A stretch of DNA of 64,000 bases, from contig NZ_JBGKAC010000001.1 of assembly GCF_041361465.1 (NCBI RefSeq), forward strand, positions 1,736,001-1,800,000, written 5' to 3'. Positions 16,874 to 24,483 of this stretch are shown here, in pieces (the first letter of the stretch is position 1; every line of letters begins with the position of its first letter). The notes under the pieces are model-generated. The model did no database searches, had not been told where the DNA came from, and was given only the letters and a program-made list of their open reading frames with translations. This stretch comes from Halobaculum sp. MBLA0143. Its GTDB lineage: Archaea; Halobacteriota; Halobacteria; Halobacteriales; Haloferacaceae. Both the position numbers and the translations under genes were made by a program.

Positions 16874-17074
16874 ATGGTGTTCAAGAAGATCACCCTGATC
16901 GGCCGGAGCGCAGAGAGCTTCGACGACGCGACCGACGACGCCGTCGACCGGGCAGAAGAGACGCTCCAGAACGTCCACTGGGTAGAGGTGGACGAGCTCG
17001 GCGTCGAGGTCGCCTCCGTCGAGGATCGGGAGTACCAAGCGGAGGTGACGGTCGCCTTCGAGTTGGAGGAGTGA
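16874..17074 (+). CDS. Dodecin (flavin storage protein)
   Basis: 66 aa, exactly dodecin size. It assembles as a hollow dodecamer that binds riboflavin/FMN between stacked tryptophans. [45 protein letters not shown] matches the known haloarchaeal dodecin closely; W36 in NVHWVEV is the flavin-stacking residue. The beta-alpha-beta-beta order is complete, with a final [13 protein letters not shown] strand. A GTTAACC element at about 16840-16846 is the likely promoter. Confidence 0.95.
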
Positions 17075-17123
17075 GACGCCGAAAGCAACCGTAATTCGGG
17101 CTGCCGTGTCGCGCTTGCTCCGG

Positions 17124-17519
17124 CTATTCGGTCAGTCGGCGCACGGCTTCGTAGCCTCCCGCCGTGAGAAGTCCAGCGAGTACCGTTGCGCTCACCGCTA
17201 GGTCGGACGGGAGGACGCCCAATCCCAACTGGAGGGTGCCGATCGTCACCATCGTGTAGAACCCGACACTGGTCGACGGGCCGTACTGTCGATCGTCGCT
17301 CGTCTGCCCGTCACTTCCAACTGGGGTGGTCGGCTCGGTCGAACGACGTGCCGCGAGAACGACGCTCGATAGAACGACGAGACCGGTTGCTGCCTTCATC
17401 GCTCCGATGCTCGACATTCCCGACGCCGCGTTCACCACTCCAGCACCGACAACTGACAGCCCAGCTACGAGTACAACTGACATTCGAGCTTGTCGACCGT
17501 TAACTATCTCTTTGTTCAT
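17124..17519 (-). CDS. Small membrane protein beside halocin gene (candidate immunity protein)
   Basis: 131 aa with three to four predicted TM helices (about 13-35, 42-60, 88-105 and 106-125) and no recognised domain. ATG 17519 follows a strong TATATAAA box at 17541-17548 with leaderless spacing, so it has its own promoter although it lies directly downstream of the halocin gene on the same strand (61-nt gap). Small hydrophobic proteins in this position commonly protect bacteriocin producers; here that is inference from location only. Its frame is intact although the halocin gene is broken. Confidence 0.7.
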   Translation of the reverse strand: MNKEIVNGRQARMSVVLVAGLSVVGAGVVNAASGMSSIGAMKAATGLVVLSSVVLAARRSTEPTTPVGSDGQTSDDRQYGPSTSVGFYTMVTIGTLQLGLGVLPSDLAVSATVLAGLLTAGGYEAVRRLTE

Positions 17520-17540
17520 GTTTTGCTTTGTTAACGAAAA

Positions 17541-17548
17541 TATATAAA
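17541..17548 (-). promoter_or_regulatory. TATA box of the halocin-adjacent membrane gene
   Basis: Plus-strand TATATAAA lies about 25 nt upstream of ATG 17519 on the minus strand, in an AT-rich pocket. One of the strongest TATA boxes in the window. Confidence 0.7.
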
Positions 17549-17580
17549 GTTTTCTGACCTGTGCGGGTGGCAGACAGAGT

Positions 17581-18411
17581 CTACTCGCAGACGTTACACT
17601 CGATGCTGACGAGCCCGATAGCAGCACCGACACAGCAGACACACGCGGTTCCTGCGGATGCGGCTGCACCGATGGCCGACGAACAGCTCCCGCAACACCC
17701 GATTGTCGCCCCTCCAGCGGCAGCGATCGACCCGACGCAGGAGGTGTTCCAGGTGCAGAACGGCCACGTACCGGGAACCTCATAGTCGGCAGAGACATCC
17801 GACACTGCCTCTCTGAGGTCGTCACGAGTCACGGTCTGGTGATTGACTGTCACTTGACCCCGCTCGAACTCGTACCGTGTAAACTTCTGTGCGTTGTCGG
17901 TCTGCTCGCCGAACACGGCGAAGGAGTCGTCGTCGCCGTTGGATGTCCAGATGAGACCGCCCTTCCCGGACTCGTACTGTAGCGTGTACGTGTACTGAAC
18001 GTCGTCCCCGTCGACGACGGTCTTCACGAACGCCTCGCTGTCAGAGGACAAGCCCTCGCGGCTCGGGCGTCGTCGGATCGTCTCGAACTCGTCTGCACCC
18101 CGTGCGCGCTGACGGATCGACTTCTTCAGTTCGCCGTCAGTGACGTTCACGATGTCGGCGGTTACGTCACTACCGGAGATCTCGGAGCTCTCTCCGGCTA
18201 GCGTGCTGCCCGACCCGACGCCGATGCCCGTGAGACCAACGGCAACCGCCGAGAGAGCACGCCGTCGCGTAGCAGAGGCCTCGGTGTCGTCTTCGCGCTC
18301 TGCACTGAGTGCCTCTCAGGCCTCTGAGCAGCCACCACCGTCGGCGACTTGATCGCTCAGTTCCTTCTGATGCGCCTCGACATCGATGTCCTGTTGGCTA
18401 CTACCAGACAT
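17581..18411 (-). pseudogene. Halocin C8-like bacteriocin precursor interrupted by in-frame TGA
   Basis: From ATG 18411 the frame reads MSGSSQQDIDVEAHQKELSD..., then TGA at codon 32 (18318-18316), and continues open to 17581: 276 codons in all. After the stop come a Tat signal (TRRRALSAVAVGLTGIGVGS), a middle domain, and a C-terminal core starting near WPFCTW with ten cysteines in about 60 residues, ending IECNVCE. Tat signal, pro-region and a ten-Cys C terminus are the plan of halocin C8. The sequence SEA-TGA-EAL suggests a TGG (Trp) to TGA change. The next start codon in frame is GTG 18150, beyond the Tat signal, so a downstream start would give a non-exported protein. Confidence 0.75.
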
Positions 18412-18432
18412 CAGGTCGTTGTGTATCTAGAA

Positions 18433-18439
18433 TTTAATA
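18433..18439 (-). promoter_or_regulatory. Halocin gene TATA box
   Basis: Plus-strand TTTAATA (minus TATTAAA) centred 25 nt upstream of ATG 18411. The promoter looks intact, which supports ATG 18411 as the original start and a recent inactivation. Confidence 0.6.
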
Positions 18440-18540
18440 CTCCTGCAAAATCTTCTCTAGTACAACTATGACTAATCCCGATAATCGCGCGGTCATATAC
18501 TCCTTTCCGAAGGCCGGTGCAACTCGGACGTGGATAAACT

Positions 18541-18570: not shown

Positions 18571-19608
18571 GTGACAGACGAACTTCGCACCACGATGGAG
18601 CGGGTCGGGGAGCGGTTCAACCTCGGTGAGTACGAGATCGACGCCTACCTGGCCGTGCTCGAACACGGTGAGCTGACGGCCAGTGAGATCGCCGCCGAGA
18701 CGGACATTCCCCAGCCACGAGTGTACGACACGGTCAGGAGCCTCTCGGACCGTGGACTCGTCGAACTCCGGGAGTCACGCCCGATGAAGATCGTCGCCGT
18801 CGACCCCGGCGACGCCTTCGGCGACATCCGGTCGTCGCTCGCGGAGATGGTCGACGAGCTGGAGGCACGCTACACTGCGCCGGCCCGGGACACGGAGGCC
18901 GTCTCGCTCGTCAAGTCCCGGTCGACGATCCTCCGGTACCTGGAGGAGATCGTCGCCGACGCCGAGTACGAACTGGCCTTGTCGCTCACGCCGGACCTGT
19001 TGCGTCGGTTCCGCGACAGCTTAGAGGAACGAGTCGCCGCGGGGGTGAGCGTGGAGCTGCTCGTCACGCCCGCCTCGCGGGCCCCCTCGCCCGAGGAGTT
19101 CGACTACGAGTCCGTCGCCACGGAGGCGCGGGCCCGCCGCGGGATCACGACGCCCGTGATCGCCGTCGCCGACGGCGAGTACTCCATCTACGCCACCCAG
19201 GACGCGCTGCGGGACGACCGCGACCGCTACGGCGTGATCTTCAACCGGTCGGCCCTCGGCTTCTTGGTGTCCGGCTTCTACGGCACCGTCCTGTGGACGA
19301 CTGCCGAGACGCTGGCCACGGACGGAGAGTCACGCCCGTTCCCGCGGACCTACGCCTCCATCCGACGGGCAGTCAAAGACGTCCACGAGCTGAGCGGAGA
19401 GTTCCACGTCGAGGTACGAGGCCGGGACGTGGCGACTGGCAACGAGATCCACCTGGAGGGTCCCGTGCTCGCCCACGAGTTCGACGCCTCCGAACAGGTG
19501 GCCTCCTTCTCCGTCGCCGGCGAGGACGGCGACCCGGTCAGTGTCGGCGGGCTCGTCGCGGCACTCGAAGACGTCGAGGCCCAGGAGATCGTTCTCGACA
19601 GGTCCTGA
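18571..19608 (+). CDS. TrmB-family transcriptional regulator
   Basis: 345 aa. The N-terminal winged helix reads [50 protein letters not shown], the classic TrmB DNA-binding domain; a coiled helix (about 88-105) follows, then the C-terminal sugar-binding-type domain ([33 protein letters not shown] and later [18 protein letters not shown]). TrmB proteins usually control sugar metabolism genes. Here it is divergent from the halocin gene and tail-to-tail with a secreted hydrolase, with no sugar operon in view. GTG 18571 is supported by the TATA box. Confidence 0.92.
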
Positions 19609-23174: not shown

Positions 23175-23199
23175 CCTGGCTGTTCCACTCACCGTGTGC

Positions 23200-24483
23200 A
23201 TGTCCGACACACGACGGGAGTTCCTGCGGCTGAGCGGCGGGGCACTGGGCGGGTTGTTCGTCGGTAGTTCGGTGACGGCAGCCGAACGGACGGATCGGTT
23301 CGTCGTGACGGGCGAGCAGGTGCCCGGTGACTTGGAGGTCGTCCACGAGATGCCGGGCGTGTCCGTGAGCGTCGTTCGGGGCACCGAGTCGGCGGTATCC
23401 GCCTCGAAGGACGTGAAGCAGTACGCGCCGGACGTGGAGATCAGCATCGACGAGCCGACCGCGGAGCCGACCGCGGCGCCCGCGGCCGCCGAACTGGAGG
23501 AGCCGTTGGCCGCGCTCCAGTGGGACAAACAGGTCCAGAACCTCGGAGCGGTCCACGAGCGCACCCGGGGTGAGGGGAGCCGCACGGCGATTCTCGACAC
23601 CGGAATCGACGAGAACCACCCGGACTTCGGCAACCTCAACGAGGACCTGTCGCGCAACTTCGCGGCCGACGACGGCGACCACAGCCCGCCGGGAACGCGC
23701 TATCACGGCACACACGTCGGCGGAATCGCGGCTGCGACGGACGACGGCGTCGGGGTCGTCGGCACGGCGCCGGCGACGGACCTGGTCGACCTGCGGGTGT
23801 TCGGTCCCTCCGGCGGCGCCTCCTTCGGCGCGATCCTGGCTGCCGTCACCTACGCCGCGAACGTCGGCTGTGACGTCGCCAACCTCTCGCTGGGCGCGTA
23901 CCCGTTCCCGCGGAAGGGCAACGGGAAGTTCTACGGTGGTGTCCTGAACGAGACGATGACGTACGCCAACGCCCAGGGGACGCTGTTGGTGATCGCCGCC
24001 GGCAACGACGGCGCCGACCTCCAGCACGACGGCAAGGTCATGTCTATCCCCGCGGAGGGGGCACAAGGGCTCGCGGTGTCTGCCACCACCTCCGTCGACT
24101 TCGATCCGTTCACGGGGACCGCGGACAACCCCGGCACGCAGCCGGCGAGCTACACCAACTACGGCACGAACGCGGTCACGTTGGGGGCCCCCGGCGGGGG
24201 CACTCCCCCCGGCGGCGGCGTCAGCGACCTCGTGTACAACGCCATCCCGTTGGCGACCGCCGAGGCGTTCGGCTTCCCGCAGCCGTACGCCTACCTCGCC
24301 GGCACCTCGATGGCGGCTCCACAGGTTGCCGGGGCGGCCGCGCTCGTCGCCGCCGAGAACCCGGACTACGACGCCAACCAGGTGGAGGCGGCGCTGAAGC
24401 AGGCGGCGTCCGTCCCGTCGGACTTCGACAAGGCGTACTACGGGGCCGGGTTCCTGGACGTCGAGGCCGCACTCGACGGGTAG
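23200..24483 (+). CDS. Tat-exported subtilisin-like (S8) serine protease, halolysin type
   Basis: 427 aa. The Tat signal is MSDTRREFLRLSGGALGGLFVG. The propeptide runs to about residue 100, with an Ala/Pro/Thr/Glu-rich hinge (EPTAEPTAAPAAAELEE). The catalytic triad is D in TAILDTGID, H in RYHGTHVGG and S in LAGTSMAAPQVAGAAAL, with oxyanion Asn in AAGNDG. The chain ends soon after the catalytic domain (YYGAGFLDVEAALDG), so there is no C-terminal PPC-like extension, unlike longer halolysins. Likely an extracellular protease activated by autoprocessing. Convergent with yhbY. Confidence 0.93.
   Translation: MSDTRREFLRLSGGALGGLFVGSSVTAAERTDRFVVTGEQVPGDLEVVHEMPGVSVSVVRGTESAVSASKDVKQYAPDVEISIDEPTAEPTAAPAAAELEEPLAALQWDKQVQNLGAVHERTRGEGSRTAILDTGIDENHPDFGNLNEDLSRNFAADDGDHSPPGTRYHGTHVGGIAAATDDGVGVVGTAPATDLVDLRVFGPSGGASFGAILAAVTYAANVGCDVANLSLGAYPFPRKGNGKFYGGVLNETMTYANAQGTLLVIAAGNDGADLQHDGKVMSIPAEGAQGLAVSATTSVDFDPFTGTADNPGTQPASYTNYGTNAVTLGAPGGGTPPGGGVSDLVYNAIPLATAEAFGFPQPYAYLAGTSMAAPQVAGAAALVAAENPDYDANQVEAALKQAASVPSDFDKAYYGAGFLDVEAALDG

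What the first reader, a model, noticed from the sequence alone, without database searches (positions are those of the whole stretch)
17581..18411. Halocin C8-like precursor with a single in-frame TGA but intact promoter and core
Seen: from ATG 18411 one frame runs 276 codons, with only TGA at codon 32 (18318-18316) interrupting it; Tat signal and ten-Cys core follow. The TATA box is in place. Inference: a recent TGG-to-TGA change silenced production, or the stop is read through. The product would be a new member of the HalC8 class (I see little residue identity to HalC8 beyond the cysteine count and plan).
Basis: partly seen in the sequence, partly recalled or inferred. Interest (0 to 1): 0.75.

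Follow-up and report, generated by a model that had tools for sequence, protein, structure and literature searches.

The report
Broken halocin-type precursor in imported cassette
A salt-loving archaeon carries an imported two-gene cassette for a secreted, cysteine-rich, probably antimicrobial peptide, whose precursor gene is cut by one stop codon at a nearly invariant tryptophan while its membrane-protein neighbour is intact; the damaged front part belongs to a widespread haloarchaeal module that marks such precursors.

Summary
In detail: from ATG 18411 one minus-strand frame runs 276 codons, broken only by TGA at codon 32, then a Tat signal, a Cys-free pro-region and a ten-Cys end. Codon 32 lies in a conserved pre-Tat prefix (DGGGCxExWE). 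Of 58 other motif matches held, 54 have Trp (one a spurious match), 2 Met, 2 Leu, none a stop. An intact full-length relative exists (G214, 38% identity). No tRNA among 43 loci has anticodon UCA; nonsense inactivation is likeliest, assembly error and leaky read-through stay open. The gene and an intact small membrane-protein gene form a ~1.4-kb low-GC3 insertion between dodecin and TrmB genes that adjoin in two congeners. 'HalC8 class' is partly right: TIGR04449 and PF22862 are not met and cores do not align, but the pro-domain is remotely related (hhalign 93.6%) and some TIGR04449 precursors carry the prefix. New point: all 22 intact prefix-plus-Tat precursors end in an 8-14-Cys core, against 3 of 20 Tat controls. 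Antimicrobial activity is inferred, not shown.

The parts
17581..18411 (-). Precursor frame, 276 codons plus TAG, interrupted at codon 32
   Evidence: intact full-length relative in G214
18316..18318 (-). In-frame TGA at the column of the near-invariant prefix Trp
   Evidence: of 58 other matches 54 Trp, 2 Met, 2 Leu, 0 stops; 0 UCA anticodons in 43 tRNA loci
18277..18411 (-). Pre-Tat prefix, about codons 1-45 (acidic stretch, DGGGCxExWExxSxxR)
   Evidence: alignment A1; order-wide profile search
18196..18276 (-). Tat signal, about codons 46-72 (RR at 49-50)
   Evidence: invariant RR in A1; read from the sequence
17776..18189 (-). Cys-free pro-domain, about codons 75-212
   Evidence: hhalign 93.6%, E 2.1e-7 to pro-domains of HalC8-type precursors; reversed control 0.10%
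17584..17772 (-). Ten-Cys hydrophobic core, about codons 214-276
   Evidence: aligned by eye and MAFFT with cores of G214, G139, G222 and others; does not align with TIGR04449-type cores (0.16%)
17124..17519 (-). Intact 131-aa small membrane protein, candidate immunity protein
   Evidence: no curated family over cut-off; weak similarity to the G214 neighbour
18431..18439 (-). TATTAAATT, TATA-like, 28-20 nt before the ATG
   Evidence: read from the sequence; function not tested
17073..18514 (.). Approximate extent of the inserted cassette, absent in congeners G001 and G003
   Evidence: low GC3 of both genes
16874..17074 (+). Dodecin gene, left flank of the insertion
   Evidence: PF07311, E 3.3e-21
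18571..19608 (+). TrmB-family regulator gene, right flank, divergent
   Evidence: NF047392, 569 bits over cut-off 500

Best explanation
The window holds an imported two-gene cassette: a precursor for a secreted Cys-rich peptide of the halocin kind, and a small multi-span membrane protein that probably protects the producer. When intact, such a precursor would be made with a helical prefix ahead of a Tat signal, exported, and cut between a Cys-free pro-domain and a Cys-rich core that acts on rival haloarchaea (inferred from HalC8). In this genome a nonsense codon at the prefix's conserved Trp stops translation after 31 codons, before the Tat signal, with no restart codon available; the strain is therefore probably a non-producer that still carries the intact membrane protein. 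Shown: frame, stop, conservation of the Trp, existence of an intact relative, insertion, intact neighbour. Inferred: antimicrobial activity, immunity role, loss of production.
For: Trp in 54 of 58 other matches and no other stop at that column. Intact full-length relative in G214. 22 of 22 intact prefix-plus-Tat precursors end in 8-14 Cys against 3 of 20 Tat-only controls. Pro-domain related to HalC8-type precursors. Decayed copies are common: 4 of 26 other fetched prefix-plus-Tat frames are broken or core-less. Insertion between dodecin and TrmB genes, empty in G001 and G003, with low GC3. In G115 the core part is deleted while the neighbouring membrane protein is intact, dN/dS 0.16. No UCA tRNA.
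Against: No raw reads and no second strain seen. The membrane protein has no clear homologue (best other E 0.0013 in 392 genomes) and its likeness to the G214 neighbour is weak (E 0.001 in a single pair; 0.009-0.017). HalC8 itself is described as carrying immunity in its own precursor, so a separate immunity gene would be a difference. The order of import and break is not known. No activity data for any member of this core group.
Confidence: 0.68

Rival explanations
1. Assembly or base-call error: the gene is intact in the organism and the peptide is made.
For: The rest of the 276-codon frame is undamaged, the neighbour is intact, and only one base distinguishes this frame from an open one at a conserved Trp.
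Against: The assembly is in 2 contigs, 97.2% complete, 0.29% contaminated; a lone substitution is a less usual kind of assembly error than an indel (general knowledge). Related copies are often broken.
Confidence: 0.15
2. The stop is read through at some level (near-cognate reading by the Trp tRNA, or programmed), so full-length precursor is still made.
For: One tRNA-Trp (CCA) is present; near-cognate reading of UGA by tRNA-Trp is known in bacteria (recalled), and would put Trp at the position where relatives have Trp.
Against: No relative has a stop at this column (0 of 58); no UCA anticodon in 43 tRNA loci; TGA ends 5 of 10 checked window ORFs. The 23 stop-bearing hits are natural ends of short proteins as far as traced.
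Confidence: 0.07
3. The family is not antimicrobial: these are other secreted Cys-rich proteins (surface, redox or signalling peptides).
For: The prefix also occurs on ~40-60-aa standalone proteins and on a ~228-aa protein with a Cys-rich end, both without a Tat signal; no activity data exist here; no curated bacteriocin family is matched by the window.
Against: Patchy presence, a plasmid and transposase setting in H. trapanicum, variable cores, decay, adjacent small membrane proteins and a pro-domain shared with HalC8-type precursors fit a bacteriocin-like arms race better.
Confidence: 0.25
4. The cassette was imported already broken and is a passenger; the membrane protein does nothing here.
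For: Nothing dates the break after the import; no close allele was found.
Against: The frame has only one lesion and the neighbour none; the G115 neighbour shows purifying selection after loss of the core (small counts).
Confidence: 0.2

Closest known systems
Halocin C8 (ProC8 giving HalI and HalC8); NCBIfam TIGR04449 halocin_C8_dom; Pfam PF22862 Hac8_like_N
   Same: Plan: Tat signal, Cys-free pro-domain, C-terminal Cys-rich core of ~60-76 residues with ten Cys; remotely related first half of the pro-domain; small membrane-protein ORF close by in many cases; some TIGR04449 precursors carry the same prefix (L131, L132, L137, L139, L146).
   Different: Neither model matches the window protein; the cores do not align; Cys spacing differs; three named halocin C8-like precursors lack the prefix. 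HalC8 precursor length and processing are from review PMC11509114 (passages).
Unnamed core group of G214, G139, G222 (second locus), G161, G260, G187, G015
   Same: Same core pattern C..C..C-x2-C..C-x2-C..C-x2-C; G214 is 38% identical over the whole length.
   Different: Intact frames; extra Cys and other pro-domains in several; no curated family above cut-off and no experiment known to me.
HmHapP (HFX_0892) with halolysin HlyR4, Haloferax mediterranei (PMC12893001)
   Same: Secreted latent precursor activated by proteolysis; a subtilase gene lies in this window (23194-24483, PF00082).
   Different: HmHapP releases an active N-terminal helical fragment (passages); no sequence comparison was made; a link to the window subtilase is speculation.

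Membership tests
TIGR04449 halocin C8-like domain | Core reaches the curated cut-off of 24 bits | tested here: not met
   0 families at E<=10 for the window protein; own-genome search with TIGR04449 finds only C1:330049-330258
TIGR04449 halocin C8-like domain | Core profile alignable with TIGR04449-type cores | tested here: not met
   hhalign 0.16%, reversed control 0.31%
PF22862 Halocin 8-like N-terminal domain | Pro-domain reaches the curated cut-off of 27 bits | tested here: not met
   not listed for P0001 at E<=10; own-genome search finds only C1:329605-329871, below cut-off
HalC8-type precursors (wider sense) | Related pro-domain | tested here: met
   hhalign 93.6%, E 2.1e-7 over 65 columns, reversed control 0.10%; 64.4% against three named records; hand-picked sequences and borders
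HalC8-type precursors (wider sense) | Tat signal followed by a Cys-free pro-region and a ten-Cys C-terminus | tested here: met
   (frame read through the stop)
Halocins | Secreted product that inhibits other haloarchaea | not testable with these tools
   needs culture or expression
Halocins | Immunity function in the locus | not testable with these tools
   candidate membrane protein only by position and by the G115 parallel
Recoded (read-through) gene | Stop conserved at the same codon in relatives, or a cognate UCA tRNA | tested here: not met
   0 of 58 other matches with a stop; 0 UCA anticodons in 43 tRNA loci, genome 97.2% complete

The most novel reading that the evidence does not exclude
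The pre-Tat GGGCxExWE prefix is a general address or handling module for a large, mostly unannotated superfamily of haloarchaeal halocin-like precursors: a shared prefix and variable pro-domains serve interchangeable Cys-rich cores (HalC8-type and at least one other core group), the same element exists as a very widespread standalone microprotein, and producers repeatedly lose the precursor while keeping a neighbouring membrane (immunity) protein, as in this window and in G115.
Probability: 0.45. Interest if true: 0.75.

Novelty: new variant of a known kind. Interest (0 to 1): 0.5.

Why it matters
Few halocins are known at sequence level; a sequence signature that finds Cys-rich precursors outside TIGR04449 would widen the list considerably. 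The locus and its G115 counterpart also look like two separate cases of precursor loss with the neighbouring membrane protein kept, a pattern that makes producer, resistant and sensitive dynamics of archaeal communities testable.

Tried and rejected
Programmed TGA read-through as a conserved trait: 23 hits reported in-frame stops, which first looked like a conserved recoding. I fetched the 20 not yet held and read them with the others (one of the remaining three, L034, on the right strand): the stops lie after the motif, at the natural end of short proteins or in frames beyond it, not at the Trp column.

Weak hits (L002-L007): four (L002, L004, L005, L006) have as a main frame long proteins that look like CBS-domain repeats (recalled label); L003 showed only one long frame of doubtful coding; L007 was not inspected. 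Dropped as not relatives.

Single-sequence AlphaFold2 model: mean pLDDT 36.5, pTM 0.24; not used, and no fold search was made. One PDB hit at E 0.83 ignored; none for L137.

Membrane protein as a recognisable family: no Pfam or NCBIfam family over cut-off, best other hit E 0.0013.

Terminal repeats marking the insertion: none convincing.

Literature: searches listed no paper that I could recognise from title or abstract as describing the prefix or this core group; most subscription papers are not held, so this is weak evidence of absence. The HalI helix-loop-helix paper is not held and was not read.

Full report
Observation. The frame is as described: 18411-17581 on the minus strand, 276 codons, one internal TGA at codon 32 (18318-18316), terminal TAG, Tat signal, ten Cys in the last ~60 residues. 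No ATG, GTG or TTG lies in frame between the TGA and codon 88 (GTG 18150), beyond the Tat signal, so an internal restart cannot give an exported product. First-order Markov sequences of the same make-up give <=1 stop in 109 of 20,000 cases: composition alone is only moderately surprising, and homology has to carry the case.

Relatives. The part after the stop gave no convincing relative in 99 near genomes, the plasmid collection, viral contigs or the genome collection. Reading the stop as Trp and searching 392 genomes of the order gave matches at E<=1e-3 in 61 genomes. The best other is full length, without stops, in G214: E 1.1e-50, 38% identity by BLASTP. Many others match mainly residues ~5-95, that is, before and at the Tat signal; some match only residues ~71-211 and were not followed up. 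So the part cut by the TGA is the most widely conserved.

The prefix. An alignment of 17 N-termini, the window's among them (A1), shows M1, G25, G27, E30 and the twin Arg invariant, and C28, W32 and R39 at 90% or more. A profile of it matches 352 of 392 genomes at E<=1e-3; this number includes Tat-only matches and many ~40-60-aa standalone proteins ending soon after the motif (...GCGCTEIWEHLSEER-stop), as well as a ~228-aa protein with a Cys-rich end. In the loci held (tRNA loci left out), 59 distinct matches have a residue at the Trp column: 54 Trp (all TGG; one of these, L110, is a Tat-only match with a chance Trp), 2 Met, 2 Leu and the window's TGA. No other stop occurs there. The loci held are a selection (best hits and stop-bearing hits), not all 352 genomes.

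What follows the prefix. The 28 best places (E<=1.2e-15) have prefix plus Tat. I analysed 27: the window and 26 fetched ones; the 28th (G051:C32) reads the same as L146. Of the 26, four are broken or core-less: L133 (in-frame TAG and a deletion), L126 (frameshift), L141 (truncated) and L140 (165 aa, no core). The other 22 places (21 distinct proteins; L145 repeats one in L122) all have 8-14 Cys in the last 110 residues and none between the Tat signal and that stretch. Control: of 20 Tat-only matches from the window's own genome, 3 have >=8 Cys in the last 110 residues (L220, L222, L232). Of 20 of the 22 intact precursors scanned, 4 reach TIGR04449's cut-off, one exactly at it; L146's locus does so. 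One of 10 scanned passes PF22862. The others have no curated family above cut-off, and the two on Halorubrum trapanicum pCBA1232-01 that I looked up are annotated 'hypothetical protein'.

HalC8 or not. The window protein matches neither TIGR04449 nor PF22862. Profile-profile comparison of cores gives 0.16% (reversed control 0.31%); of pro-domains 93.6%, E 2.1e-7 over 65 columns (reversed control 0.10%) (sequences and borders chosen by hand). Against three named 'halocin C8-like domain-containing' records the pro-domain gives 64.4%, E 6.4e-5 (reversed 0.17%); those three records lack the prefix. A plain BLASTP of the window protein with the TIGR04449 protein of the same genome shows nothing significant (best E 0.07). 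The window core lines up instead with those of G214, G139, G222 (second locus), G161, G260, G187 and G015 in a pattern C..C..C-x2-C..C-x2-C..C-x2-C. So: the HalC8 plan and a remotely related pro-domain, with a different core. The same genome does hold a TIGR04449 gene at C1:330049-330258, with a 132-aa membrane protein behind it.

Neighbour and cassette. Sixty-one bases behind the precursor lies an intact 131-aa membrane protein (17519-17124). Small ORFs with two or more hydrophobic segments lie within 450 nt of 22 of 30 precursors by script; the script's longest-start rule missed the window's own and L121's, which I see by hand. The count of such ORFs is 23 in the 0-450 nt bin and 2-7 in each later bin of equal size. 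ORFs were called mechanically, so some are spurious. In congeners G001 and G003 the stretches matching the dodecin and TrmB flanks are 40 and 66 nt apart, against 1442 nt here; G002 (74% complete) has no match. GC3 is 0.725 (precursor) and 0.644 (membrane protein) against 0.89, 0.914 and 0.943 for three other window genes. The pair is therefore most simply a lineage-specific import; that the break came after the import is likely but not shown.

A parallel case. G115, of G214's genus, has the same locus with 90% identical flanks, a gap of ~600 bp that removes pro-domain and core, and an in-frame TAG near the start; its divergent 127-aa membrane protein is intact, 92% identical to G214's over 118 residues, dN/dS 0.16 (25 substitutions), against 0.52 on 70 codons of the precursor remnant (10 substitutions). 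Small numbers, but they point the same way: precursor lost, membrane protein kept.

Decoding. The genome shows 43 tRNA loci; ARAGORN finds one Trp (CCA) and no UCA anticodon. Completeness is 97.2%, so a missed tRNA cannot be ruled out. TGA ends 5 of 10 checked window ORFs. Read-through has no positive support.

Mechanism, with status. Import of the pair: supported by the two empty sites. Export by Tat: predicted. Cleavage between pro-domain and core: inferred from HalC8 (review PMC11509114, passages read; its protease is unidentified according to a discussion passage of PMC12893001). Inhibition of other haloarchaea: inferred. Immunity by the membrane protein: inferred. Loss of production in this strain: follows from the stop unless the assembly is wrong or the codon leaks.

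Noticed in passing
G000:C1:329452-330264 (L147:3453-4265): A true TIGR04449 halocin C8-like precursor (270 aa, no prefix) elsewhere in the same genome, with a 132-aa membrane protein 11 nt behind it.
   Followed up: partly
G000: L149:647-1354, L220, L222, L232: Further Tat proteins of the same genome with many Cys in the last 110 residues (16, 10 and 8 in L220, L222, L232; L149 ends in a hydrophilic Cys-rich stretch) and no prefix.
   Followed up: no
L029, L027, L037 and L195:3408-4100: A ~228-aa protein that carries the prefix without a Tat signal and ends in a Cys-rich, zinc-ribbon-like stretch is related (E 4e-16) to the ORF behind a halocin C8-like gene on Haloferax lucentense pSVX82-2.
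   Followed up: partly
L044-L063; G000:C1:784264-784377: Very widespread ~40-60-aa haloarchaeal proteins consisting of little more than the GCGCTEIWEHLSEER motif; the ones scanned match no curated family over cut-off.
   Followed up: partly
window 23194-24483 (+): Subtilase (PF00082, E 8.5e-42) with a Tat-like N-terminus about 5 kb from the precursor; whether it processes such precursors is unknown.
   Followed up: no
G000 tRNA loci: ARAGORN calls one tRNA with anticodon CUA ('Pyl'); possibly an intron-bearing tRNA misread, not checked.
   Followed up: no
G111:C1:2044857-2044958 (L144): A remnant of 34 residues, 59% identical to the end of the window core, in a 45-codon frame: another decayed copy.
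   Followed up: partly
G161:C2 = Halorubrum trapanicum pCBA1232-01 (L122, L146): Three prefix-Tat-Cys precursors on one plasmid contig; in the stretch looked up, two of them lie among transposases, each with a divergent regulator.
   Followed up: partly
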